Of a stretch of DNA of 37,531 nucleotides, positions 1-13,484 are shown piece after piece. Source of the DNA: an uncultured Pseudomonadota bacterium (GTDB lineage Bacteria; Myxococcota_A; Bradymonadia; Bradymonadales; Bradymonadaceae); NCBI GenBank assembly GCA_950059285.1, contig CATLTV010000030.1, positions 1-37,531 on the forward strand, in the 5' to 3' direction. Each line of letters opens with the position of its first letter. Position 1 is the stretch's first letter. The notes beneath the pieces are model-generated. The model saw only the letters and a list, made by a program, of their open reading frames with translations. It was not told where the DNA came from and did no database searches. The position numbers and the translations under genes were made by a program.

Positions 1-2759
1 TCGTTCATTGCCATGTCCACACCTCGCTGCACGAGGTCTGATACATCGACCTTCTCCTTCGGGTCACCTTGCAATTGGCGCGCACGCTCAAGACCCTGTG
101 TGATCTTCTGCATGCTGCTTGGCAAGGGTTTTGAGGAGAAGAACGAACGCGAATCAATCGCCAAAAACTCGGCGACATTCTTCTGACCAACGCGAGCCTC
201 AAGGCTCTCGGCGGTGCGACGCATATCATCTTTCTCAAACGATTGAAGTTGCTTAAACAGATGTTCATAGGCAGCCTGAGCATCATCTGCCTTGGATGGT
301 TCAATGTGCTTGAACACAAGCCAGGTGTTGAGCGCAACCCACACATGCCAGCGCTCAGGGCGACTCGTCTTGGAAGAGCTGCTAAAGAAACCTCTGACAT
401 TTTTGGCCCAGGCCCTGGTGTCACCACCCGACATCTTCTGTGCACCAATGCTCTGCTCAAATCCTTCCATCGCCTCATGAATCAGGTCACGTGCACGTGC
501 GCTCATCCCAAGGTTTGCAAGAATCCTCGCCAGGGATGCCTTCGATGAATGGAAGATCTTCTTGGTCTGAAGCTGGCCTATCGCCTGCTCCACAACCTCA
601 ATGTTCTGAAGCACATAGTTTGTGTCCGTACCATCTTCAAGCTCTTCATCGGCTAACTCAAGCTCGGGGTCTTTCAGGATGCGCTCACGCAAGAATGTGG
701 CTGCGTCTTGCGTCAACAGACCATTCTTGTTGAGCTCGCCAAGCAAGCTCTCCCTGATCTCTTCCTGTGTCCTGACATCCTGAGTTGCAGACAAAATATC
801 GCGCCAGGCAAGCCACCTGACCTTCTTCCCAAGACGCTCCTCTACACTTCGCAACTCGTTGGCAACATTCATCAATTCACCAAGAGCCATATCCGAAGAA
901 CCCTCGCTCTGATGAGCAAAGACTTTGCTCACAGGCAACAGCTCTTTTGGCTCCTGGTTGGCCTCTTGAAATGCAGCGAGGAAGCCATCCTTGAAGAGCT
1001 TGACCTCATCGTCCTTGACGGTGACCACGGCACCATCAAGCGGATATTGAACCGTCCAGAGCCCCTCAATTGCGCATGTAATCGCATCGCTCCACTGGCG
1101 GCGACGATGCTTGACCACACCCAGGTCTTGCCACAGCTCAACCTGTGGGCCATGACGCACAAGATCTCGCTCAAGATCAGCTTCCAACAGCTCAAGTTCA
1201 GAGGGAGTGTCTGCGACCTTGGCTGTCGCGTCTTCTGCTTTCACCTCATCGACCTGACGTGCCTGAAGCTCAAGGCGACGAGCGCGCTGCTTTTTGGCGC
1301 GATCGATGCGTTGCTGCATACGATCACCCTTGTTTTTGGCGTTTGCATTCTCCTTGGGCTCTGCCTTCTCCACTTTTTTGCGCTTTGTTTTACTCTCGGT
1401 CATCCCTGCTCTGGATGGCGCATCCTTGTACACGCCCAGATCAAAAATAGAGTCCTGAAGGATGTCCTCCAACGCCTCGCGTTCAAAGTGCACCACATAA
1501 TCTACAAAGTTTTTAAGCGGTTCAAAGGAGCTCTTCAACACACGCACATGCTTTGCATCTTCCACGGAGCTACCATGACGCCCCGTAGCAGCATCATAAT
1601 CGGGCACCACAAAGCTCAACACGGCAGGTCTTAGTTCGAACAACTTCTTGTACTGATCTCGCCTGAGCTGTGGCTCAAGCACGAGGTTGTTGGGCAAGAA
1701 AAGGTTGTCAAAGCCCTTGTAACGGGCAAAGGGCACACCACCCACGTGCATCAACAAGGTGCCATCGCTCCCACGATGCTTTTCCCTGAGGAAATACCAC
1801 TGTTTACCCTCATCATCGCGCACCGCAGATAACTCCAGACGCTCGATGTCCGCATCATCAGCCATGGAGAAATAATCTTCCAGACGATCGCGATCATCCT
1901 CACGCAACAGGAGCACTTCCACAGGAGCAGGCTCATGCCTTGGGGCAAGATTCAAGCTCACCTGAAAACGATCCTCACCATGAGAGAGCTGCTCCCATGC
2001 ATCAACATCATCAATGTTGATGGAGAAATCAGTAAGCTCGTAAATACTTCTCCACTCTGGCTTTTGCGTCACCTGGAAGTGTGCATTGGCAGGGAAGAAT
2101 ATCCAACGATCCTGATGCTCGGAGAAGGATCGACGCCAGAGCTCAGCCAGTGGGTGTCTATAACCCCATTGCACATAGAGGCCAGGACCATCCGTCATCG
2201 GCACGAACAACGTCTGACGTTCTGGGTCTTGCTCCTGACACCAGGTCAGCAGGTAGTATGATGGTGACTCGATGCGTATAAGCGTCACCTCCTCACCCTC
2301 ATGTGTAAAGCTTGCAAGGCTGATGCGATCGTTGTTCAAATACAACGATCGACGCACAATCTCTGGCATCAATGACTTGTCCTTGAGCCAAAACACCACG
2401 CTCACATCATGATCTTCCTCCTGACCATGATGCACCTGTGTAGGTTCAATCAGCTCTTCAAGTCTTGGCGCGCTCTCAAAACCAAAGATCTCAAGTTGCT
2501 CTTTTCTCTTGTCATTGTACAAGAAAAGATCGCCATTTTCTGAGCTTACATGAATTTCACGCCCAACATTCTCGGGCAGTGGAGCCTTGAGAGAATTACT
2601 TGATACACCAAGCAAAATAAGCGCCTGACGTGCCTTGTATTCAGGGTGGCGTACACGATACGCAGTGAACAGCCCATGCGCTGACTCTTTCGGTGTCTGA
2701 TTGACCTTGAACAGATCAGCGAGGGCGCGCACATCCTCAATTAAATAAGCGTAAACCAT
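1..2759 (-). CDS. Giant FtsH-system protein, truncated at the left edge (>919 aa)
   Basis: The reverse strand is open without a stop from an ATG at 2759 to base 1, giving at least 919 residues; the C-terminus lies outside the window. The first ~450 residues look globular and beta-rich with many aromatic and acidic residues. A Lys/Arg/Glu/Ala-rich linker follows at about residues 455-515, probably helical. The last ~400 residues are mainly predicted helix. I see no signal peptide, membrane segment or recognisable catalytic motif. It starts 7 bases after the stop of the 87-aa gene, with an AAGGGA-type ribosome site overlapping that stop, so it belongs to the same operon as the FtsH-like protease. 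I infer it is one of the large 'X' components of an FtsH-centred ternary system, possibly a substrate-recognition or scaffold part. The function is not known to me. All rightward ORFs overlapping it are shadows. Confidence 0.85.
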   Translation of the reverse strand, partial: MVYAYLIEDVRALADLFKVNQTPKESAHGLFTAYRVRHPEYKARQALILLGVSSNSLKAPLPENVGREIHVSSENGDLFLYNDKRKEQLEIFGFESAPRLEELIEPTQVHHGQEEDHDVSVVFWLKDKSLMPEIVRRSLYLNNDRISLASFTHEGEEVTLIRIESPSYYLLTWCQEQDPERQTLFVPMTDGPGLYVQWGYRHPLAELWRRSFSEHQDRWIFFPANAHFQVTQKPEWRSIYELTDFSINIDDVDAWEQLSHGEDRFQVSLNLAPRHEPAPVEVLLLREDDRDRLEDYFSMADDADIERLELSAVRDDEGKQWYFLREKHRGSDGTLLMHVGGVPFARYKGFDNLFLPNNLVLEPQLRRDQYKKLFELRPAVLSFVVPDYDAATGRHGSSVEDAKHVRVLKSSFEPLKNFVDYVVHFEREALEDILQDSIFDLGVYKDAPSRAGMTESKTKRKKVEKAEPKENANAKNKGDRMQQRIDRAKKQRARRLELQARQVDEVKAEDATAKVADTPSELELLEADLERDLVRHGPQVELWQDLGVVKHRRRQWSDAITCAIEGLWTVQYPLDGAVVTVKDDEVKLFKDGFLAAFQEANQEPKELLPVSKVFAHQSEGSSDMALGELMNVANELRSVEERLGKKVRWLAWRDILSATQDVRTQEEIRESLLGELNKNGLLTQDAATFLRERILKDPELELADEELEDGTDTNYVLQNIEVVEQAIGQLQTKKIFHSSKASLARILANLGMSARARDLIHEAMEGFEQSIGAQKMSGGDTRAWAKNVRGFFSSSSKTSRPERWHVWVALNTWLVFKHIEPSKADDAQAAYEHLFKQLQSFEKDDMRRTAESLEARVGQKNVAEFLAIDSRSFFSSKPLPSSMQKITQGLERARQLQGDPKEKVDVSDLVQRGVDMAMN

Positions 2760-2766
2760 TGTATAT

Positions 2767-3030
2767 TTATCCCTTCTCTGTCTCCGCCTCTCGACCTGGT
2801 CCTTCTGTCACTTGCTCTCGTTTTGCAGGCTCTGGCCTCACGCGACCCACCTTGATCTGACCCACATCATCAGGGTCAAGAATGCCCTGTCCAAGCAACT
2901 GCTCCACGATGTCATGATGATCTTGCTCATGCTCATAAGGGAGCGCATCATCCTCGGACTCATAATCAATAAATATATCTCGCTTGCCTGTCTTGGGGTT
3001 GGACACCAACCTGATCGTCATCTCAGCCAT
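2767..3030 (-). CDS. Small acidic protein of the FtsH-like operon (87 aa)
   Basis: The ATG at 3030 has an excellent AAGGAG ribosome site seven bases upstream. The 87-residue product begins with a short beta-strand-like stretch (MTIRLV) and then a G-K-R-D-I-F-I-D-Y turn-strand. An acidic/His patch around residues 25-40 (EDDALPYEHEQDHHD) and a charged tail follow. There is no signal peptide or membrane segment. The gene lies between the protease gene (59 bases upstream) and the giant gene (7 bases downstream), so co-transcription is likely. I do not recognise the family. The small size and compact N-terminal strands would suit an adaptor or ubiquitin-like/beta-grasp fold, but that is only a guess. 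Confidence 0.8.
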   Translation of the reverse strand: MAEMTIRLVSNPKTGKRDIFIDYESEDDALPYEHEQDHHDIVEQLLGQGILDPDDVGQIKVGRVRPEPAKREQVTEGPGREAETEKG

Positions 3031-3089
3031 CGCTTTGCTCCTTTGTAAAATAATAAAATACGTTTATTTTAAAGCCACTTGCAGCACCA

Positions 3090-5312
3090 TCAATCGTCAT
3101 CATCCTCGTCGTCCTCGTCCTCACGAGGTCGCAGCGTGTTGCCCTCGGGGTGGACTTTGAAGGACTTGCCCCCAAAGATCTCCTTCATCTCATCAAGGCC
3201 AATGGTCTTCTTCTCAATGAGAAGCTCAACGAGGGTGTCAAACTCGGCGCGATATTTTTGCAAGGTTTCAATGCATCGTCTCTGCTCGTCCATGATGATG
3301 CGGTTGATCTCGACATCAAGTCTGGCAGCGGTCTCATCCGCGATGTCACGACCAATGTTGATCTGGCTGTGTTGCTGTTGATCAAGCCTGTAGGCGCGAA
3401 GCCCCATCTCGGTGCTCATACCAAACTGCTCGACCATCATGGATGCAATGGAGGTTGCCTGCTGAAGGTCGTTCCAACATCCACTTGAGACGTCTCCCAG
3501 AATCAACCACTCGGCCTCTCGACCACCTAGCGCCACACAAATCGAGTCCAGCAACTCTGAACGCGTGCGTACATGCTGATTTCGTGCGGTGGCATGCATC
3601 ACATAACCAAGATAGGCTTCCTCCTCGCTGGCGATGGTGATGCGTTCCACAGTAGGACAGTGTGGCAAACAGTAAGCAAGAATCGCGTGACCTGCCTCGT
3701 GTACAGCAACCGTGCGACGCTCACTCTCTTCAAGAAAGACACGCGTCTTCTTGCGAGAGCCCATCACGCTGTCCACATCCTTTTGTGTGACCTCCATCGA
3801 TTTTGCACCACGACGTAACTGCTCACGCTTGAGCCCCCTCATGATTGCGTAAAGGTGGTCACCGCTGTAACGCACACCCTTGACCGCATCCACAAAACCC
3901 TGTGTTTGCTTGACCATATGATCCATCACATCGTCAGCGATCTGGAGGTTGAACTTCTTGGCGTAAATGTCGAAGATCTTCTTGCGGTCCTTCTTGTTTG
4001 GATAGGGAATTTCGATCGCCAACTCAAAACGCCCAGGACGCATCAACGCCTGATCCAGGGACTCCACAAAGTTTGTTGTACCCACAACAAACACAAGCTC
4101 CTCTTTCCTGAAGCCATCCATCTCGGTCAGCAACTGGTTGACCATGGAGTGCTCCACACCACTTCCCGTGTATGTGCCACGCGCCGAAGCAAAGGAATCA
4201 AGTTCGTCGAAGATGATGATGGATGGTGCGCTCTTACGCGCCAGTGCAAAGACCTTCCTCAGATTTTCTTCGCTCTCACCTACCCACTTTGACTTGAGTT
4301 CAGGACCAGACACAATGCTCACGGTCGCGTTCAGTGCTGTCGCAATCGCCTTGGCAAAGAAGGTCTTACCCGTACCAGGAGGACCATGGAAAATCATCCC
4401 CTTGGGCACGATCTCCTCGATGCTGCGAATGTCATCAGCGCTGTCCATGCCCTCCTTGGCGAGCAACAGGTCGAGAATTTCCTTGCGGATCTTCTTCTTC
4501 ACCTTGTCGTAGCCACCAATATCATTGTCCAGACTAACGTGCGGAACCTCAAGATCACCAACAAGTGTAAGCTTTCGAATATCCTGGTAAATCAGGTCCA
4601 CACTTCCAGGCATATTTGGATCAAAATCAACGCGTGATTCAAGCTGGTTTAACACCTGCCTCGCGCGCACTGCGTTCAAACCTGAGAGATACTTGTAGAG
4701 GTCGTAGGGGTTAAAGCTGTGCACTCCAAACTTGCGCGCTTCACGCTGCAAGATGAGCTGAGGCAACTTGTCACGACCAATGCCCACGATGGAGTACTTG
4801 ACCGTAAACACCTTCTCGATAACCTCGGGGATCTCAAAGTTTGGATCTGTAAATCCAAGGAACACAAGATCAGGGTTTTCATACATGATCGCGGCAGCTT
4901 CACGCGCCTCCACACCCAACGAACTACGTGTTGTTGTCGTCAATATATCGAGGTGTGTGATCGCAAAGACACCATCTGTGCGTGCGCCATAAATTGCCTC
5001 ACGCAGCTCATCAAGCAAACGCTGTGTCAACGTGGCATTGGCCTGCATCGGGTTAGGATCATCAGGAGCGACCGCGCGTGGATGCCCTGAAAGTAGACGC
5101 AATGAAGGGCCTCCCGACGCGCGAAACCTCTTGCGGAGCGCCTTGTAAATGTAGTTTGAAAGCTGCTTATCACACTCGATTAACACCGAGAGACGCGCCC
5201 TTAACTTCTCCTCTATCCAGTCCAGATCCTCACGATAAGCAGCCTCAACGGCTTCATCGTAACTTAACTGTGTGGGGAGCTGTTCGATCGCTACAGAGAG
5301 TTCACTACTCAC
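3090..5312 (-). CDS. Soluble AAA ATPase-M41 metallopeptidase (FtsH-like) with N-terminal degenerate AAA-like domain
   Basis: This 740-aa protein is an ATP-driven zinc protease. The active AAA module has Walker A GPPGTGKT at 310-317, Walker B FDELDS at 368-373 and an arginine-finger segment MRPGRFE at about 424-430. The peptidase has HEAGH at 538-542 and the third zinc ligand as Asp615 in the GCWNDLQQAT segment, so the M41 site looks intact. True FtsH has two N-terminal membrane helices and a periplasmic loop; here there are none. Residues 100-200 instead look like a second AAA domain lacking Walker A. The pore-loop segment KWVGESE (342-348) is of the CDC48/Vps4 type rather than FtsH's FVGVGAS. 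The tail (731-740) is almost all acidic. Translation starts at GTG 5312, with AAGG seven bases upstream. It is the central enzyme of the operon, inferred to degrade or remodel substrates delivered by the neighbouring proteins. Confidence 0.95.
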   Translation of the reverse strand: MSSELSVAIEQLPTQLSYDEAVEAAYREDLDWIEEKLRARLSVLIECDKQLSNYIYKALRKRFRASGGPSLRLLSGHPRAVAPDDPNPMQANATLTQRLLDELREAIYGARTDGVFAITHLDILTTTTRSSLGVEAREAAAIMYENPDLVFLGFTDPNFEIPEVIEKVFTVKYSIVGIGRDKLPQLILQREARKFGVHSFNPYDLYKYLSGLNAVRARQVLNQLESRVDFDPNMPGSVDLIYQDIRKLTLVGDLEVPHVSLDNDIGGYDKVKKKIRKEILDLLLAKEGMDSADDIRSIEEIVPKGMIFHGPPGTGKTFFAKAIATALNATVSIVSGPELKSKWVGESEENLRKVFALARKSAPSIIIFDELDSFASARGTYTGSGVEHSMVNQLLTEMDGFRKEELVFVVGTTNFVESLDQALMRPGRFELAIEIPYPNKKDRKKIFDIYAKKFNLQIADDVMDHMVKQTQGFVDAVKGVRYSGDHLYAIMRGLKREQLRRGAKSMEVTQKDVDSVMGSRKKTRVFLEESERRTVAVHEAGHAILAYCLPHCPTVERITIASEEEAYLGYVMHATARNQHVRTRSELLDSICVALGGREAEWLILGDVSSGCWNDLQQATSIASMMVEQFGMSTEMGLRAYRLDQQQHSQINIGRDIADETAARLDVEINRIIMDEQRRCIETLQKYRAEFDTLVELLIEKKTIGLDEMKEIFGGKSFKVHPEGNTLRPREDEDDEDDDD

Positions 5313-5339
5313 ATTAAAACCTTAGTCTATTCAAACAGT

Positions 5340-5398
5340 TAAAACCGATTAATCGGCAGAGGAGGCGAACCTTACTGCGGTCAGGTTCGCCTCCTCTG
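5340..5398 (-). terminator. Internal hairpin between the 188-aa gene and the protease gene
   Basis: A perfect 15-bp stem (arms 5357-5371 and 5384-5398, 12-base loop) is followed, in the leftward direction of transcription, by a small palindrome CCGATTAATCGG and then TTTT. This is a terminator-like structure inside an operon. It may be an attenuator or an RNA-processing site that sets the ratio of upstream proteins to protease. Confidence 0.6.
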
Positions 5399-5455
5399 GT
5401 TGGATGCACACGATAAAGTGTGGATGGGAGTGGTCAGGTCGTGCGTCATATGCGC

Positions 5456-6022
5456 TCAAACCTCAATCTTGATCACCAGCTCATACTCACCCGCTTCGTT
5501 GGTGCCCTCGTACTCCTCGACCACATCGCCAAGACGTCGCGCCTTGCGCTTGAGCGCCTCGGAGTACACATCTTGAAGCACCTGATTCATCTCCTCGAGA
5601 CGATCGCTTTCACCAGCAGCAAGCCTGGAGCTGACATCGCTCTGAGCATCCTTCTGACCACGCTCAAGCAAGGCATTGGCCTGCTGTTGTGCGCGGTTCT
5701 CTGCCTGGCGCTTTGCTGCGGCACGCGTCTCTGCATCACCCCAGGAATCCACCTTGCCAGATACGGTCTTCTCGACCTCAAGCTCGGCCGTCAACTCCAG
5801 AGACTCCATATCCACAGTGATCATCTCACCTGAAGCACCTTCCTTGACGAGCTTCTTGCCCTCTTCTTCCTCTTCAAAACCTTGCTCGACCAGGCGCGCG
5901 CGCAAGAGGTCTTTCATCTCATCCTCTGGCAGGACATCTCTTAGATCAAGCTGGTGAACTGTCTTGTCATCTGCCGAGACGACTTCGCACACCTTTAGTG
6001 ACACACGATATGCTAAACTCAT
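5456..6022 (-). CDS. Acidic coiled-coil-like protein of the FtsH-like operon (188 aa)
   Basis: I chose the ATG at 6022 because AGGAGA lies seven bases upstream; an in-frame GTG 11 codons earlier has no comparable site. The protein begins with a strand-rich segment (MSLAYRVSLKVCEVVSADD) and is Glu/Asp-rich. A long Ala/Gln/Arg-rich helical stretch of coiled-coil character spans about residues 95-160. It ends with a strand-like segment (YELVIKIEV). There is no signal peptide or membrane helix. It follows the 373-aa gene by 36 bases and precedes the protease gene after a hairpin. I do not recognise a family; an adaptor or structural subunit is plausible from context only. Confidence 0.8.
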   Translation of the reverse strand: MSLAYRVSLKVCEVVSADDKTVHQLDLRDVLPEDEMKDLLRARLVEQGFEEEEEGKKLVKEGASGEMITVDMESLELTAELEVEKTVSGKVDSWGDAETRAAAKRQAENRAQQQANALLERGQKDAQSDVSSRLAAGESDRLEEMNQVLQDVYSEALKRKARRLGDVVEEYEGTNEAGEYELVIKIEV

Positions 6023-6058
6023 AATGGTTCTCCTGTTTTTGTGTTGTGCTCCCACATG

Positions 6059-7180
6059 TTACGCTCCAATAACTCCCCTGAGTGTATTGGAGAACACATG
6101 GGCGCGGTGTGCAATTTCAGCAAAGGGTTCCTGCTCGTAGGTGCTCATAAACACCTTGTCGCCAGCCTCACGATCAATGGGGTGAATCTGACGAATATCC
6201 TCATACTCCGTCCTGATGCGCTGACATAAATCAACCCATCTGGACCACATCTGGCGATAGGAGTCGCGCTCCGAGAGCTTGAGCTGTCTGGCTATCTTGT
6301 TGAATGAGTTGAGCTGATTCTTCTCATATGGAATCTCTGCACCGTTCTTTTGAACAGCGAGCACATCCCTGAAGAACTCAATAAAAACGAGAAGATAGTC
6401 TTTTCTGCTCCTCTGTTCTGCCAACGTAAATAACGCCTCGCCAAAGTGAGCAAGACCACGATTGAGTTTATCAAATCTGTCCAGACTTTCCCACCTTGAG
6501 AGCAATTGATAACTCCAATAGTTGGCCACATATTTCGTAAGCCATGGCCAGGAGGGCTCAAGGTCATCCTGAAACAACCGATTCACCACGGCCAATGCAT
6601 CCTCTTCCTCGGGCATATTCAATGTCACGAGTCTGGTCAGAGGATTACGGCCAAAGCTCTGAAGCGCCACATCAGCAATACGAAAGTTGGCGTCATCAAG
6701 ACGCTTCCACACAATGTGTGAAGCCAACAGATCACCATTTAACTTCGTACTCGGATGCACGCTCTTGGGGTAATTACGCGTCTTGGGGACAGGCATCCCA
6801 CTGGCAAAACACATCGCGTTGTACGCAAAGATCACGCTCTCGATCGAATGCTTGCTAAACGCCAGTCGACGCCCTGCTCCCCTCCACTGCTCCTGGCCAA
6901 TGCCACGTTGATTATGACGTGGATCATCCCTGCCAGTGTCCGCAACCATACGTTTTTGCCAGGCTCCCTGACGGCTTAAAAACGCCAGCGTACCTCGCTC
7001 AATCGAGGCAGCGAGCGCGTCCACAACCTCGCGTGTTAACACCTCGGGATCGCCCAGTGGTAACGGCTTGGAGTGCCTTAATTGCAAGGGCGAGTTTTGA
7101 AAAATATCCACGCCAAAGGGCAACATGTGAAAGGCTGCGATTTCCTGCAACCTGTTGTCTGATATCGTCTTTCTTGACAT
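6059..7180 (-). CDS. Unknown cytoplasmic protein of the FtsH-like operon (373 aa)
   Basis: ATG at 7180, 24 bases after the stop of the radical-SAM gene; the ribosome site is weak. The protein is mostly alpha-helical, with many Trp/Arg/Phe residues and a short invariant-looking stretch HSIESVIFAYNAMCFASGMPVPKT cut here into its key parts: HSIES, AYNAMCFASG and PVPKT at about residues 111-134. No nucleotide-binding, zinc or protease motif is evident, and no signal peptide. Its place between the radical-SAM enzyme and the acidic coiled-coil protein, all on one strand with short gaps, indicates a dedicated component of the same system. I do not recognise the family. Confidence 0.85.
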   Translation of the reverse strand: MSRKTISDNRLQEIAAFHMLPFGVDIFQNSPLQLRHSKPLPLGDPEVLTREVVDALAASIERGTLAFLSRQGAWQKRMVADTGRDDPRHNQRGIGQEQWRGAGRRLAFSKHSIESVIFAYNAMCFASGMPVPKTRNYPKSVHPSTKLNGDLLASHIVWKRLDDANFRIADVALQSFGRNPLTRLVTLNMPEEEDALAVVNRLFQDDLEPSWPWLTKYVANYWSYQLLSRWESLDRFDKLNRGLAHFGEALFTLAEQRSRKDYLLVFIEFFRDVLAVQKNGAEIPYEKNQLNSFNKIARQLKLSERDSYRQMWSRWVDLCQRIRTEYEDIRQIHPIDREAGDKVFMSTYEQEPFAEIAHRAHVFSNTLRGVIGA

Positions 7181-7204
7181 AAACCATACGCAGCTAAAAC
7201 TAAG

Positions 7205-7867
7205 TTACTTTGACTTCGCTCGGATCGATGCTCGGGATAACTCCACGATGCTCTCCTCAGGAAATCCATTGATGGAGATCTGATCTCCCACCATACGCAG
7301 CTCAATCGTATTGGGCTCCTCGGCCCATCCTGAACTGGTCTCGGCCAGGTGCTTGTAACGCTCTGTTAAAAAATGAACCTGCTGGTTGGATGAACCAATC
7401 CATCTCCTGTCATTGACATGCATGGACTTGATATAGGGGCCATCCACCAAGAGGTCGATCTGCGATAAAAATGCGCTCCAATCATCCCGATTCTCTCGCT
7501 TTATACGTCGCATTGTCAAACCTGAAAAGACCATCACGCCAAGTCCTCTGGACCTCACCTCGCGCGCAACCTCAGCGAGCGCTTCAGCTTGCCAGAACGG
7601 CTCCCCTCCAATGAAGGTCACACCCTCTATCCCCTCCGTGTTGACGATCCTCTCCACCACATCATCCACATGACATAACTCCATTCTCTGATCCTCCAAC
7701 ATGTGCGGGTTACAACACCCCTTGCACCTCAAAGGACACCCCTGCACCCATAGCGCATAACGCACACCTGGCCCCTCAGCCTCTGTACGTGGCACCTCGT
7801 TGGCCACGTTGACCCACGCTGCACCCATCTCTGTTGAACTTGTAAACTCAGGGGCTTCACCCTTCAT
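7205..7867 (-). CDS. NrdG-like radical SAM activating protein
   Basis: This 220-aa protein has the radical-SAM 4Fe-4S motif C-x3-C-x2-C at Cys44, Cys48 and Cys51 (GCPLRCKGCC) and the SAM-binding GGEP at 87-90. It is the size of a minimal single-domain activase such as NrdG (anaerobic ribonucleotide reductase activation) or PflA. Family knowledge: such enzymes cleave S-adenosylmethionine to a 5'-deoxyadenosyl radical and usually install a glycyl radical on a partner. No NrdD- or PFL-like glycyl-radical protein is present in the window, so a new partner within this operon is possible. The start is firm: AGGAG lies six bases before ATG 7867. It is the first gene of the leftward operon, and the regulator gene diverges from it. 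Confidence 0.9.
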   Translation of the reverse strand: MKGEAPEFTSSTEMGAAWVNVANEVPRTEAEGPGVRYALWVQGCPLRCKGCCNPHMLEDQRMELCHVDDVVERIVNTEGIEGVTFIGGEPFWQAEALAEVAREVRSRGLGVMVFSGLTMRRIKRENRDDWSAFLSQIDLLVDGPYIKSMHVNDRRWIGSSNQQVHFLTERYKHLAETSSGWAEEPNTIELRMVGDQISINGFPEESIVELSRASIRAKSK

Positions 7868-7978
7868 TGGACTCTCCTAATCGACAAGAAACGACAAATA
7901 ACCCATCATTCACAACAACTTAAACCAAACAAAAACAAACATCAGAACACTCCACCTTACCTATGAAACCTCCTCACC

Positions 7979-8035
7979 TGCAAGTGCATTCCAATCGACT
8001 CAATCATGTCATCACGATCATTGTTATCACTTGCA
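7979..8035. promoter_or_regulatory. Candidate operator: inverted TGCAAGTG pair in the divergent intergenic region
   Basis: TGCAAGTG at 7979-7986 and its exact complement CACTTGCA at 8028-8035 lie between the radical-SAM gene and the divergent XRE-type regulator gene. The placement suits an autoregulatory operator controlling both. No strong sigma-70 boxes could be picked with confidence. Confidence 0.3.
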
Positions 8036-8108
8036 TTTGGGGGTATCTTCACTTAAAACTTGCTTCATCTCCTCTAATCTCCCTCAACACACTTCAAAGG
8101 GTGGGATC

Positions 8109-8366
8109 ATGAGCACTCCTTGGCAAATTGAACTGGGTCAAAAACTTCACAATCTCCGCATGGAGCAGGGCCTCAAACTGCGCGAACTCGCTCAATCCGC
8201 AAACATGTACTGGATTGAGTTGGATCGTTATGAACGCGGTGAACAAACACCTGACCTCCACAAGCTCTACATGATCGCTGAGATCCTCAACGTCTCCCTT
8301 CATGAGATCTTACCTCCTCATGCCAAGGAACCTGAGGAATACACCCACGAACAAGATCAAAACTAA
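8109..8366 (+). CDS. XRE/Cro-type helix-turn-helix regulator (85 aa)
   Basis: A single HTH_3 domain is visible: a LGQKLHNLR first helix, GLKLRELAQSANM as the turn-helix, WIELDRYERGEQTPDLHKLYMIAEILNVSLHEIL as the remaining helices (quoted by parts: YERGEQTPDL at about 40-50). A short charged tail follows. I chose ATG 8109 over an upstream in-frame start because residue 1 there begins directly before the domain and AAGGG/GGG lies just upstream. The gene diverges from the FtsH-like operon across 241 bases, so it probably represses or activates that operon and itself. No ligand or peptidase domain is fused to it. Confidence 0.88.
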   Translation: MSTPWQIELGQKLHNLRMEQGLKLRELAQSANMYWIELDRYERGEQTPDLHKLYMIAEILNVSLHEILPPHAKEPEEYTHEQDQN

Positions 8367-8446
8367 AGAATCAAAGATATCAACATGAAAAACGGCGTCG
8401 GTGATCTATCACCGACGCCGTTTTTCATGTTGATATCTTTGATTCT
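8367..8446. terminator. 39-bp perfect inverted repeat filling a convergent gene gap
   Basis: Arms 8367-8405 and 8408-8446 are perfectly complementary with a 2-base spacer. The left arm begins immediately after the XRE stop codon, and the right arm ends one base before the stop of the leftward beta-helix gene. A/T tracts inside the arms make it a natural bidirectional terminator, though the stem is far longer than usual. Confidence 0.85.
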
Positions 8447-8447
8447 A

Positions 8448-10712
8448 CTAACTCAGCTTGAATCGCTTTGCTTCAACTCTACCACGCATTGAACGCACGC
8501 GCTCTTCACCCTTCCAGATCACTCGCAATGCCCCATCCTGAGCATCCAAGCCACCGCCCTTGACGTGGTTGGAACGCAGCGAGAGCCTGTCTGAGAGCTC
8601 AACGCCCATCGTCATCACACTCTGCTTGTGGTTCACATCACCGATGCCCACCGCGCTTGGCTCCTCCATCGCCAAGTTGCCTGTACACTCCACATCCAAC
8701 AACTTGACCACAAAGGGTAACTTCAACTCACCATTACCAATCGCTTCCTCCACAAAGGAAGACACCTGCACGCCCGCATACATCGCACCGCAACTCTCAA
8801 GCTGCGCCACATTATCCTGAAACACACAACGATCCTTCAGGCGTATCGAACCGTTCACACTTGCAACGCCTCCTCCCATTGACGCTTCATTGGCTCGCAC
8901 AAGTAACTCTGTCCCCAATAGCTCTGCGCCATGAAGCAAATACACCGCCCCACCCAGACTGCTAACATCATCACCCTTGTTATACTCAAAACCCACGTTG
9001 CTCGCCTGAATCACGCTGCCACCCAGCGCCAACAACGCACCTCCCCCCTTCTGACCAAAGTTCTTCTCGCACTCCACAAAGGAGAGCTTGACGATGCTTC
9101 GTGTCTCCTCATCATACCCACCCACAGCCAGAATAGCTCCGCCTGAACGTGAGCGATTGTCCTTCATGACCAGAGGTTTTGCCCTGTCCGTACCCTGCAT
9201 CAACATGCGGCTCGCAATACAGGCGATCGCACCACCTGACATACTCGCGCCATTACTTCGAAACTCACAGTCCACAATCTTGATCTGACTGGAACCAACC
9301 CAGATTGCACCACCTGTCCCCTCTTGCTCTTCCCATCGCGCGGGCTCAAGATCCTCCAAAGCTTCCACAGGTAAGTGCTTGACCTGGCTCTTGTTTTCAA
9401 GGAACTCACTGGTTGTTACCGAGCACATGCCACGCATTCCCCAGAAACAAAGCGCGCCTCCGCGCTTGGATCGGTTGCGTTCAAACAAACAGCTCTCAAC
9501 CTTCACCGCACTCTCGGTCGCGGCAATCGCACCACCCTCGGGAGACTTGTTGTCCCTGAAGATACTGCCCACAAACCGAATACCGCCCACGCTGATATCC
9601 GAACCTGAAAGCTCAACAAAGGCACCACCCTGGTCAAACTGTTCAACAACACAGCTCACCACAGAGACCTTCTCTCCACGGCTCAAACGAATCCCTACCT
9701 GACCTGCCTTGCCTCGTCCCACAATGTGACAACCAAAGATCCCCTGCCCTCCACCTGGATCAAAGCGGACGCCAATCTTCTCCATACCTGGAATCAAAAT
9801 CGTGACACGATCCACATCGCCCACATCACGTTGTCCCTGAAGCCACCTCAATCGCTCCTCAGGACCTCCTTCAGCGGGCATCCTGTGGTTCACAATCGCA
9901 ACCTGTGGAGGAAGCACCACGTGCTCCTTGTACACGCCAGGCATGACACGAATCTGCACGCCTCGCTGCGTCTCGCGGACGAGCTGACGGGCACGAATAA
10001 TCGCATCTTTGATGGTTGAATATGGAACCTCACGACTACCTTGCTCGCCCTCATCAAGACTGAACCCTGCCATGTCATGCTCGGGGTCCACATACAACAC
10101 AGGCAAACGACTCATCCCCGAAGGCGAGAAGAAGCCGTCGATGGTCGCCTCCTCTTCCTTGATGATTGCCTCCATTCTACGCGTTTCGCTAATCTGGATG
10201 CCCACCTGATCCATCAATGTCTGACCTTGCTCCTGATCCTCTTTTGAGGTCGAGCGCCAGCTCTCAACTTTCTCCCCTTCAGGCTTTAGAATATTGGCAA
10301 GTCCTTCATCTTCAAGCTCAATTTCAATCCCTTGCTCAAGCTCTCTTTGCGTAACTTTGGTGCTTCTCATCGGCTCACGAACAGGTCGGTGACGTACTCT
10401 CGCTTCTTGCTCAAGACGCTCTGGCAATGCCGCTCTTCTATCCCGGGGATTGCCAAGCATCGACATGATTGCACCCACGAGCAATGCACCCATACCTGAC
10501 ACAAAACCTTCTCTTGAGGCCCACACAGGATGCGCGTCCCAACACAATCCAGCGCCGCTCATCGATGCGCTCAAATCCTCCTGGCCCAGTGCAATCCTAA
10601 GATCAGAAATGTTGCCTGGAAATTCCAGCGCACAACTGATCCATGGCACAAACGACGCCAGAAGGATCACGACACCTATCAATACTAATATTTTCCCTAC
10701 GTTACGAATCAT
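8448..10712 (-). CDS. Membrane-anchored right-handed beta-helix protein (754 aa)
   Basis: Two hydrophobic segments at the N-terminus (about residues 5-27 and 70-85) flank a small Cys-containing loop. A charged Glu/Arg-rich linker follows (about 90-200). The C-terminal ~550 residues carry many GGA(I/L/V) and FxxN-type elements (GGAIAAT, GGALCFW, GGAIWVG, GGAIACI, GGAILAV, GGGALLAL, GGAVYLL). These are typical of parallel beta-helix proteins and chlamydial polymorphic-membrane-protein-like repeats. A 'VDPEH...STIKDAI..A' start like DUF1565/pectate-lyase helices precedes them. ATG 10712 is preferred over a TTG two codons earlier; neither has a clear ribosome site. The topology is unusual because the helix domain follows membrane helices rather than a cleaved signal. 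Function unknown; surface binding or polysaccharide recognition are possibilities. Confidence 0.85.
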   Translation of the reverse strand: MIRNVGKILVLIGVVILLASFVPWISCALEFPGNISDLRIALGQEDLSASMSGAGLCWDAHPVWASREGFVSGMGALLVGAIMSMLGNPRDRRAALPERLEQEARVRHRPVREPMRSTKVTQRELEQGIEIELEDEGLANILKPEGEKVESWRSTSKEDQEQGQTLMDQVGIQISETRRMEAIIKEEEATIDGFFSPSGMSRLPVLYVDPEHDMAGFSLDEGEQGSREVPYSTIKDAIIRARQLVRETQRGVQIRVMPGVYKEHVVLPPQVAIVNHRMPAEGGPEERLRWLQGQRDVGDVDRVTILIPGMEKIGVRFDPGGGQGIFGCHIVGRGKAGQVGIRLSRGEKVSVVSCVVEQFDQGGAFVELSGSDISVGGIRFVGSIFRDNKSPEGGAIAATESAVKVESCLFERNRSKRGGALCFWGMRGMCSVTTSEFLENKSQVKHLPVEALEDLEPARWEEQEGTGGAIWVGSSQIKIVDCEFRSNGASMSGGAIACIASRMLMQGTDRAKPLVMKDNRSRSGGAILAVGGYDEETRSIVKLSFVECEKNFGQKGGGALLALGGSVIQASNVGFEYNKGDDVSSLGGAVYLLHGAELLGTELLVRANEASMGGGVASVNGSIRLKDRCVFQDNVAQLESCGAMYAGVQVSSFVEEAIGNGELKLPFVVKLLDVECTGNLAMEEPSAVGIGDVNHKQSVMTMGVELSDRLSLRSNHVKGGGLDAQDGALRVIWKGEERVRSMRGRVEAKRFKLS

Positions 10713-10852
10713 AACCAAGTCACTGTGAAGTCAATTTGTTCAGGAGTTTTCATGTCCCCACGCTCACTCTAACCCACCATCCGCACCTTGCCTAGAAAAC
10801 TGCCTTATCCTATCCTCTCCACGTATTTAGAACATCCATCTCATGAGGTACC

Positions 10853-11803
10853 ATGGAAGCCAGACCACTCAAGTTTGCTGTCGTGCGTGAAGACTCTCTT
10901 CTTGAACAACACATCATCTCCTCACTTCATTGCTCAAAACCTCTGCTTGTCGCTTCAGGTGGCTGCACATTACTTGATCTCAAGACAGCTTTTCCATCAA
11001 TGGAACTCTCTGGTTTTGACTTCAACCCCACGCAAATAAACCACATAAAACTAAAGCAAAACGCTGTAAAACAAGGGAATTTATCAAGACTCAATATCAA
11101 TGATGCCTCCTCACAAGGTCTGAATCAGTGTGGAGAGTTTGAATCCCTGTTTCGCATCTGGAAAACAGCGTTTCTGGAGCTCGTCTCCTCTCCTCAGGAC
11201 ACACTTAACTTCTTCCTGACTCCAGACCACTCCCATAGACTTGCCATGCTTGAGTCATGGAAACAAAACCCCTACTGGAACCTCACATTTGACCTCCTCA
11301 TGCATCACCCCATGCTTGATACGATGTTCGGTCCAGAAGCCACTCAGCACGCAGAGCAAGGCTCCTATCCTGCCTATTTTAAAGCGGTCTTTGAACGCGG
11401 CCTTGCGCAAAAAGACGCCCATAACAACCCATTCCTCCAACATATCCTGCTTGGTTACTACCTCCCACACTCCGCCCCCGCATACACTCGGGCTCACACT
11501 TTTCTTGACCTGAACCTGATGCTTGGCTCGCTGACCGATATCCCCAACCTGAGCCGCTATGACTTTGTACAGCTCTCCAACATCTTTGACTGGTCTGATG
11601 ATGCGCTCATCTCATCTTGGGCTGATGCGCTCCAGAACCTCAAACAAGGCGCGGTCATTCTTATTCGACAACTCAACAATACGCGTGACTTGAAACCCTT
11701 CTTCGCCCCACATTTCTCCTTTGATCACGCCCTCGCCAAAACACTGCTCCAACACGATCGGAGCCTCTTTTACAATCACATCGAAGTAGGAATCCGCGCA
11801 TGA
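10853..11803 (+). CDS. DUF3419 / BtaA-like aminocarboxypropyl transferase
   Basis: The 316-aa protein has the glycine-bearing SAM-binding start ASGGCTLLDL (about 34-43) followed by the LSGFDFNPTQINHIKLK segment (about 54-70). This matches the 'D-x-N-P-x-Q' motif of DUF3419 proteins such as BtaA. Family knowledge: BtaA transfers the 3-amino-3-carboxypropyl group of S-adenosylmethionine to diacylglycerol in betaine-lipid synthesis. Here no BtaB methyltransferase follows. The acceptor is probably different, given the GNAT-like and oxidase genes downstream. ATG 10853 has GAGG four bases upstream. Its stop overlaps the next start (ATGA), so the two genes are translationally coupled. Confidence 0.85.
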   Translation: MEARPLKFAVVREDSLLEQHIISSLHCSKPLLVASGGCTLLDLKTAFPSMELSGFDFNPTQINHIKLKQNAVKQGNLSRLNINDASSQGLNQCGEFESLFRIWKTAFLELVSSPQDTLNFFLTPDHSHRLAMLESWKQNPYWNLTFDLLMHHPMLDTMFGPEATQHAEQGSYPAYFKAVFERGLAQKDAHNNPFLQHILLGYYLPHSAPAYTRAHTFLDLNLMLGSLTDIPNLSRYDFVQLSNIFDWSDDALISSWADALQNLKQGAVILIRQLNNTRDLKPFFAPHFSFDHALAKTLLQHDRSLFYNHIEVGIRA

Positions 11804-12726
11804 GCTCTATCACTCTTGAAATCATCGACTCCTGGGAGATTTACCCCTACATTGATGACCTCCATGAACTTGAACAACACATGGTTTATCCTGTTGATGA
11901 ATCTGATAATTTCATCATAAGCCATGGTTCACATTATCACCCATTCTTCTCCGATCTTGGCGCTGCAAAATTCCTGCTTCTCAAGGAAAAAAGCAAGGTC
12001 CAGGGCATTCTTGCAGGCGTCTGGAGAACCATTGACATTCAACAACAACAGGCACGCGCACTCTACCTTGGCGACCTCAAACTTGCCCCGCACCTGCGTG
12101 GCAAGAACCTCGTCGTGAACATGATCTGGCATGGCATCAAACAACTCTTCAAGCGCGCTGACCTTGGCACATGGAGCGTCGTCTATGGCGTCGCCATGCG
12201 TGGCGAAAAAGGTGATGTGTTGCGCTCCATGGACCAACCTCTTCACCCCTCCAAATGGCTTGATTATCACGCACAATTTAACCTCTATTTTGTTCCTCCC
12301 ACGCAGCTCCTGGAACTCCCTGACAACTCCCCTGCTCCTAAGCCATCTCCCCACGTCAACTTCTCGCCCGATCGTGCACAATCCCTCTTTACCACACGAG
12401 GCACCAAGGACTTTATCCTACAATCCACCAACGCTCCCTGGTCTTTGGTCCACCTTGACCTCGCAAGCCAACCTTCACTCGCATTACATGAAGCGCTGAA
12501 GTCTGGCGCACAGGACGCTGTACACTCCCAACCTGCGGATGCATTAGCCTGCTTTGCCATCGACAAAAAGCGGCGCGACCAGATCGACTGGCTCGCCAAT
12601 CATGGCATCTCATCCACCTCCACCTGTACGCTCTACGCCATGCAGGTTCACAACCGCTGGATGTCTCCCCAAAATCCCTTGTTACAACAGATGCACCACG
12701 CTTACCTGGCCACATCAACAATATAA
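11800..12726 (+). CDS. GNAT-like acyltransferase
   Basis: The 308-aa protein contains a GNAT-style core around residues 65-125: a strand ending in ALYLGDLKLAPHLRG, followed by KNLVVNMIWHGIKQLF. This resembles the beta4/acetyl-CoA-binding loop and helix. The C-terminal ~130 residues may be a second, degenerate GNAT-like half (SWSLVHLDL-type strands). It overlaps the BtaA-like gene by four bases and lies 14 bases before the oxidase gene. It may acylate an amino group produced by the aminocarboxypropyl transfer, which is inference from context. The family is assigned with moderate confidence because the core motif is short. Confidence 0.65.
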   Translation: MSSITLEIIDSWEIYPYIDDLHELEQHMVYPVDESDNFIISHGSHYHPFFSDLGAAKFLLLKEKSKVQGILAGVWRTIDIQQQQARALYLGDLKLAPHLRGKNLVVNMIWHGIKQLFKRADLGTWSVVYGVAMRGEKGDVLRSMDQPLHPSKWLDYHAQFNLYFVPPTQLLELPDNSPAPKPSPHVNFSPDRAQSLFTTRGTKDFILQSTNAPWSLVHLDLASQPSLALHEALKSGAQDAVHSQPADALACFAIDKKRRDQIDWLANHGISSTSTCTLYAMQVHNRWMSPQNPLLQQMHHAYLATSTI

Positions 12727-12740
12727 AAGGATCAACCATT

Positions 12741-13484
12741 ATGGATACTTACATCAAGGAACTCAAAGCTCGTTTGGACCTCGAAAACCACCCTTATTTT
12801 CAACAACTTGAGCAGAAAAACTTCGATCGCGATGACTTCCTCGAAACACAGATCCAGTTCATGTTTGCTGTGGTCTTCTTCTCACGCCCCATGGCTGTCC
12901 TTGCTGCACGACTTCCTCGCCCAGAGATGCGTCTTAACATCATTCACAACGTCTTTGAGGAGCACGGCGAGGGCAACCTCAAACTCTCACACGAAAAGAC
13001 ATTCCTGACCTTGCTTGCAGGGTTTGGGATCACCTTTGAAGACCTCGACACACGCGCCATGTGGCCCGAAGTGCGCGCCTTTAACACCACCCTCGCAGGA
13101 CTCTGCAATCATGACGACATCCTCACAGGTGTCGCCACGCTCGGCATCATTGAGGACCTCTTCTCAGGCTTCTCCGCTCGCCTGGGTCGCGGCATCCTTG
13201 AGAATGGCTGGCTCTCAAAAGATGCGCTCGTACACTATGGTACCCATGAAGAACTCGACGAGGAACATGCCGAAGAGTTCTATGAAATCATTCGTCCGTT
13301 TTATGCTGAGGATCGCGCAAAATATCAGATTCAACAAGGGCTTGAACTCGGTGCGTATATCTTCACAAGACTCTATCGTGACCTGTATCAAGCTCGCAGC
13401 AGAAGATGGCACCGAGATGTACGTGGCCCTCACAGCACATCAGAAGGGTGGCAGCTGTCCAGAACATGGATGGTAGAAAGTTAG
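12741..13484 (+). CDS. Haem-oxygenase-like di-iron oxidase (CADD/PqqC-like fold)
   Basis: The 247-aa all-helical protein carries the ligand set expected of haem-oxygenase-like di-iron enzymes. Glu74 lies in FEEHGEG, His84 in KLSH, Glu138 in GIIEDLF, and His169, Asp173 and His176 in the HEELDEEH segment. Family knowledge: such enzymes (UndA, SznF, BesC, CADD types) use O2 to oxidise amines, fatty acids or amino acids. ATG 12741 has AAGGA nine bases upstream. It is the last gene of the BtaA-like/GNAT operon, and its stop codon abuts a 35-bp hairpin. Substrate unknown; an aminocarboxypropylated and perhaps acylated metabolite is the contextual guess. Confidence 0.85.
   Translation: MDTYIKELKARLDLENHPYFQQLEQKNFDRDDFLETQIQFMFAVVFFSRPMAVLAARLPRPEMRLNIIHNVFEEHGEGNLKLSHEKTFLTLLAGFGITFEDLDTRAMWPEVRAFNTTLAGLCNHDDILTGVATLGIIEDLFSGFSARLGRGILENGWLSKDALVHYGTHEELDEEHAEEFYEIIRPFYAEDRAKYQIQQGLELGAYIFTRLYRDLYQARSRRWHRDVRGPHSTSEGWQLSRTWMVES

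What the first reader, a model, noticed from the sequence alone, without database searches (positions are those of the whole stretch)
1..8366. FtsH-centred multi-gene conflict-type system with radical SAM, giant protein and divergent regulator
Six same-strand genes with short gaps join an AAA-M41 protease to a radical-SAM activase and four proteins I cannot assign (373, 188, 87 and >919 aa), with an XRE regulator diverging at the head. From memory this matches predicted FtsH 'ternary' conflict systems, but no experimental role is known to me. The likely theme is ATP-driven surveillance and proteolysis under tight transcriptional control, possibly antiphage.
Basis: partly seen in the sequence, partly recalled or inferred. 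Interest (0 to 1): 0.8.

Follow-up and report, generated by a model that had tools for sequence, protein, structure and literature searches.

The report
Split FtsH ternary system
This is a predicted but untested bacterial conflict ('immune-like') machine built around a soluble protein-shredding enzyme; it belongs to a family already described by computation, and its two switch genes sit about 20,000 bases away instead of next door.

Summary
Six same-strand genes (3-7867) encode a NrdG-like radical SAM protein, a divergent fvmX6, fvmX5, a soluble AAA-M41 protease, fvmX3-analog and fvmX7, with an XRE gene diverging at the head. These are the proteins of the predicted 'FtsH ternary system' (Kaur et al. 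2020, PMC7159879), simpler type. The protease forms a clade apart from housekeeping FtsH (100/100 support), lacks transmembrane helices, keeps its ATPase and HEAGH motifs, and has a degenerate N-terminal AAA domain. The same cassette, usually with MoxR and vWA genes appended, occurs in Myxococcota and Planctomycetota. Base 1 is a contig end. The missing tail of the giant protein lies at the end of contig C5 of the same genome. On that contig, about 20 kb further on and in convergent orientation, lies the genome's only vWA gene of this family, paired with its MoxR. So the system is complete but split, with NAD-synthesis and other ordinary genes between. The XRE regulator is confined to this genome and its nearest sampled relative. 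Antiphage function is plausible but untested here, and I found no experiment on this family. I rate it a new member of a known, uncharacterised kind.

The parts
3..2759 (-). fvmX7 protein, first 919 of ~1,120 aa; rest on contig C5 (67229-67836, -)
   Evidence: PF20005 E 1.8e-15; 54% identical to the 1107-aa X7 of G007; C-terminus at G000:C5:67238-67828, 75% identical; aa 105-460 modelled at pLDDT 85.6
2767..3030 (-). fvmX3-analog, 87 aa, conserved S..DALPxEHExxH core and a hydrophilic variable tail
   Evidence: PF20002 E 5.6e-25; alignments A1/A7
3090..5312 (-). Soluble FtsH-type protease: degenerate AAA, active AAA, M41 peptidase, 740 aa (GTG start)
   Evidence: Pfam AAA and Peptidase_M41; motifs and no TM helix; alignment; tree
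5456..6022 (-). fvmX5, 188 aa
   Evidence: PF20003 E 2.4e-22
6059..7180 (-). divergent fvmX6-type protein, 373 aa
   Evidence: PF20004 weak, E 0.005; same position as X6 of other loci; HHalign 99% to the X6-position proteins of the sister family
7205..7867 (-). NrdG-like radical SAM protein, 220 aa, CxxxCxxC
   Evidence: Fer4_12 E 7e-33; NrdG model 95 bits, cut-off 126; conserved in five aligned loci
8109..8366 (+). divergent XRE regulator, 85 aa
   Evidence: HTH_3 E 4.6e-8; an ortholog at the same place in G007 only
8368..8445 (.). 78-base near-perfect palindrome, a bidirectional terminator that closes the XRE side of the locus

Best explanation
The genes are the core of a predicted FtsH ternary system of the simpler (radical-SAM) type. 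It is complete in this genome, but its MoxR-ivWA pair is displaced by about 20 kb. Most likely working (inferred): the soluble tandem-AAA FtsH forms a cytosolic unfolding protease; X7, X5, X6 and X3-analog make a scaffold and adaptor complex around it; the MoxR ATPase with the divergent vWA protein remodels that complex when an intruder or stress is sensed, which releases or redirects FtsH proteolysis; the radical SAM protein modifies one partner, most likely X6 or a still unknown peptide. Shown here: identity of the parts, intact catalytic motifs, co-occurrence, conserved order, split layout. Inferred: complex formation, gating, substrate, antiviral purpose. I put the identity at about 0.95 and the gating mechanism at about 0.4.
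For: Pfam hits. Protease separate from 26 housekeeping FtsH at 100/100, without TM helices (max hydropathy 1.3-1.5 against 2.2-3.2 in full-length housekeeping copies) and with GPPGTGKT and HEAGH; degenerate first AAA. Contiguous rSAM-X6-X5-FtsH-X3a-X7-MoxR-ivWA in L021 and L029 and in many myxobacteria. X3-analog and ivWA co-occur: 13 genomes both, 4 and 2 single, 124 neither of 143 (Fisher p 2.5e-13). The only ivWA of the genome, with MoxR bearing the GxxxTAKS P-loop, is on the contig that holds the X7 tail. Unlinked copies are kept together in several genomes, which argues for joint function.
Against: No biochemical or phage data here, and none found in the papers searched. The 20-kb separation departs from the usual cluster. 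X6 is below the Pfam cut-off. Surrounding genes are ordinary, not a defence island, and X7 is absent from the plasmid and phage collections. Identities to relatives are close to those of housekeeping FtsH, which suggests long vertical keeping rather than fast arms-race turnover. The C5-C30 junction rests on protein homology across a gap of about 12 bases. The Fisher test ignores relatedness of the genomes.
Confidence: 0.6

Rival explanations
1. A housekeeping quality-control or development machine: a soluble FtsH with adaptors that clears particular cellular proteins, with MoxR-vWA as an ordinary assembly chaperone, unrelated to phage.
For: Core components are constant, there is no obvious variable toxin or effector in the window, identities track those of housekeeping genes, and neighbours are ordinary genes.
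Against: Patchy presence (17 of 143 relatives; 3 of 21 in the family), so not a core function; related systems in the source paper carry clear effectors (PMC7159879).
Confidence: 0.3
2. The window genes work alone: the FtsH core is independent of MoxR-ivWA in this lineage, and the distant pair serves something else.
For: The pair is about 20 kb away and on another contig in G007; four genomes have the X3-analog with no ivWA found.
Against: The pair holds the only ivWA in the genome; its MoxR is 75% identical to the one joined to the cassette in G006; the four genomes lacking ivWA are only 65-92% complete; the split pair is retained in several genomes.
Confidence: 0.12
3. The radical SAM protein is an ordinary class III ribonucleotide reductase activase that merely neighbours the cassette.
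For: Best known match is NrdG (95 bits).
Against: Below the NrdG cut-off; found inside the cassette in 27 of 44 well-covered loci, always with X6 (34 of 34 loci with enough upstream sequence).
Confidence: 0.08

Closest known systems
FtsH ternary system, simpler type (Kaur, Burroughs, Iyer, Aravind 2020, eLife 9:e52696, PMC7159879)
   Same: Tandem-AAA FtsH with an inactive first AAA, divergent vWA with helical N-terminus, MoxR with GxxxTAKS, stand-alone radical SAM protein, fvmX domains
   Different: MoxR-ivWA about 20 kb away and convergent; XRE regulator at the head; NEFF1 not looked for
FtsH ternary system, Ubl type (same paper)
   Same: FtsH, MoxR, divergent vWA; X3 and X2 look like sister families of X3-analog and X5 by weak Pfam hits
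   Different: No Ubl, E1, E2, RING, JAB or caspase gene among the genes inspected here
Housekeeping FtsH
   Same: AAA plus M41 peptidase with HEAGH
   Different: Separate clade, no TM helices, extra degenerate AAA domain
Cdc48/p97
   Same: Soluble tandem AAA; top PDB sequence matches with two stretches
   Different: First AAA degenerate; protease fused in cis

Membership tests
FtsH ternary system, simpler type | FtsH-type protein with two AAA domains, the first inactive | tested here: met
   one Walker A only; the first AAA region has no P-loop; two matched stretches to Cdc48-type proteins
FtsH ternary system, simpler type | MoxR AAA protein | tested here: met
   G000:C5:44178-45194, bpMoxR E 1.5e-59, GKPGTAKS
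FtsH ternary system, simpler type | divergent vWA with helical N-terminus | tested here: met
   G000:C5:45360-46943, ivWA 73.9 bits, cut-off 35; helical part 24.5 bits, just below cut-off 27
FtsH ternary system, simpler type | stand-alone radical SAM gene | tested here: met
FtsH ternary system, simpler type | fvmX accessory domains | tested here: met
   X7, X3-analog, X5 above cut-off; X6 below cut-off but linked by HHalign and position
FtsH ternary system, simpler type | MoxR and vWA genes in the same gene cluster (layout, not composition) | tested here: not met
   about 20 kb apart with ordinary genes between; joined relatives exist (L021, L029)
FtsH ternary system, simpler type | NEFF1 effector gene | not tested
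   the paper names it as one of two effectors seen in this type; no search was made
FtsH ternary system, simpler type | conflict or antiviral function | not testable with these tools
   prediction in the paper; no experiment found
Housekeeping FtsH | groups with housekeeping FtsH and has TM helices | tested here: not met
IetAS / viperin defence (PADLOC) | specific match to the system's proteins | tested here: not met
   only partial AAA or radical SAM similarity; no partner found
Ycf46-Ycf35(DUF1257)-DUF2997 cluster | X3-analog related to DUF2997 and X5 to DUF1257 | tested here: not met
   HHalign 0.1% and 2%

The most novel reading that the evidence does not exclude
The X3-analog is a small tag or adaptor: a conserved S..DALPxEHExxH core with a disordered, often glycine-ended tail that delivers targets to a dedicated soluble FtsH. 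MoxR-ivWA and the radical-SAM/X6 pair control its loading. That would be a bacterial tag-and-shred switch without ubiquitin enzymes.
Probability: 0.1. Interest if true: 0.75.

Novelty: new member of a known kind. Interest (0 to 1): 0.38.

Why it matters
The family rests on computation, and I found no experiment on it. This work shows that its two modules can be physically uncoupled yet kept together in a genome. This suggests that FtsH core and MoxR-vWA act as one machine, and gives two ready-made modules for reconstitution. It also narrows the radical-SAM question: the enzyme always travels with X6, and the X3-analog shows no radical-SAM-specific signature.

Tried and rejected
Relation of X3-analog to DUF2997 and of X5 to DUF1257 (suggested by the AAA-Ycf35-DUF2997 cluster seen in relatives): not supported by HHalign. 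X3-analog structure: low confidence (pLDDT 58), no PDB fold match. X7 aa 105-460: good model (pLDDT 85.6) but no significant PDB fold match (best E 0.005 with TM about 0.13). X3-analog as a typical cysteine-type radical SAM substrate: only 4 of 57 have any Cys beyond the first residue, and conservation is alike with and without the rSAM gene. Defence-system library: no specific match. Mobile context: X7 absent from plasmid and phage collections, GC even along the window. An operator-like inverted repeat between rSAM and XRE: none with exact arms of 6 or more and a loop under 12. An early reading that MoxR-ivWA was simply elsewhere in the genome was corrected.

Full report
What is there. The window starts at base 1 of contig C30 of its genome. 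Six minus-strand genes run from 7867 down to the contig edge, and an XRE gene diverges at 8109-8366. Pfam names fvmX7, fvmX3-analog, AAA plus Peptidase_M41, fvmX5, a weak fvmX6 and a radical SAM domain. The weak fvmX6 protein sits where X6 sits in other loci. Its profile aligns at 99% HHalign probability to the proteins at that position in the sister family; the match to the typical fvmX6 group is weak (33%), so I call it fvmX6-type.

The protease. It keeps GPPGTGKT and HEAGH, has no hydrophobic helix, and carries about 270 residues before the active AAA that look like an AAA domain without a P-loop. Its best PDB sequence matches are Cdc48-type tandem AAA proteins, then FtsH. In a tree, 12 ternary-type FtsH lie on one side of a 100/100 branch and 26 housekeeping FtsH on the other. 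All 17 genomes with the X3-analog carry such a second, lower-scoring FtsH, whereas four family members without it carry only housekeeping copies.

The missing end and the switch pair. In two relatives (L021, L029) the cassette runs rSAM-X6-X5-FtsH-X3a-X7-MoxR-ivWA without a break. In the nearest sampled relative G007 (L022) the cassette stops after X7 and unrelated convergent genes follow; its MoxR-ivWA pair is on another contig. In the window's genome the only ivWA gene and its MoxR lie on contig C5 at 44178-46943, plus strand. A search with the C-terminus of G007's X7 found the missing tail at C5:67238-67828, minus strand, at the very end of that 67,836-base contig, 75% identical. Reading both edges against G007's protein leaves a gap of about four residues. 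So C5 joins C30, the X7 protein is about 1,120 aa, and X7's stop is about 20.3 kb from ivWA's stop, in convergent orientation. The interval holds NAD-synthesis genes (pncB-, nadE- and pncA-like), a ribonuclease-Z-like gene, an M23 peptidase, mscS and others (gene names by inspection of the sequences), with no recognisable mobile gene. The M23 and metallo-beta-lactamase-fold neighbours recur beside MoxR-ivWA in G007, so the split is probably older than the two genera. G127 and G134, from another family, also hold FtsH core and MoxR-ivWA on different contigs; in G127 both lie well inside long contigs.

Distribution. The X3-analog is in 17 of 143 relatives and none of 14 control genomes. A scan of the GTDB species genomes gave 130 relatives; the 80 listed are mostly Myxococcota and Planctomycetota. 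Of 44 loci with at least 7.5 kb on both sides, FtsH is near in 42, X5 in 39, X7 in 35, X6 in 34, rSAM in 27, MoxR in 27, ivWA in 21 and XRE in none. The radical SAM gene never occurs without X6 (34 with both, 7 with X6 only, 16 with neither). X3-analog and ivWA co-occur across genomes (13, 4, 2, 124; p 2.5e-13; relatedness not corrected).

How it likely works. I follow the published reasoning for ternary systems: MoxR with vWA remodels a complex, after which an effector is deployed (PMC7159879, sections 21 and 35). Here the effector that can be named is the FtsH protease itself. X7 has an alternating alpha/beta N-terminal region of unknown fold relation and a TPR-like stretch further on (weak Pfam hits), which suits a scaffold or sensor. 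X3-analog is a small protein with an invariant S..DA.P.EHE..H core and a variable hydrophilic tail, which suits an adaptor or tag. The radical SAM protein is NrdG-like but below that family's cut-off; its constant partner is X6. These roles are inferences.

What is known. The system is the simpler FtsH ternary system of Kaur et al. 2020. Searches of the held papers found no experiment on it. The new points are the split yet complete layout, the lineage-restricted XRE gene, the strict rSAM-X6 link and the tree.

Noticed in passing
window 8448-10718 (-): Chlamydia-PMP-like beta-helix protein next to the XRE gene; a homologue lies at the same place in G007 (L022:13692-14447).
   Followed up: partly
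window 8368-8445: 78-base palindrome with arms of about 38 bases, a very strong bidirectional terminator between two convergent genes.
   Followed up: partly
L025:3678-7226 and L026:12448-15990: Ternary FtsH of about 1,180 aa with some 450 extra residues between the AAA P-loop and the M41 motif.
   Followed up: no
L059 and L035 (genome G111): A different split: X3-analog and X5 on one contig, FtsH-X7-MoxR-ivWA on another.
   Followed up: partly
L160, L165, L177 (Gemmata-type loci): Two X7-type genes in a row and no MoxR within the stretch held.
   Followed up: no
L178-L192: Conserved AAA-DUF1257-DUF2997 cluster in many relatives, similar in layout to the FtsH core; profile comparison found no homology.
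   Followed up: yes
L170 (BNCN01000003.1): Record named Comamonas sp. KCTC 72670 holds a Myxococcus-like cassette; probably misnamed or contaminated.
   Followed up: no
window 10853-13484 (+): Three-gene run: DUF3419/methyltransferase-like, an unassigned protein, and a haem-oxygenase-like redox enzyme (Haem_oxygenas_2).
   Followed up: no
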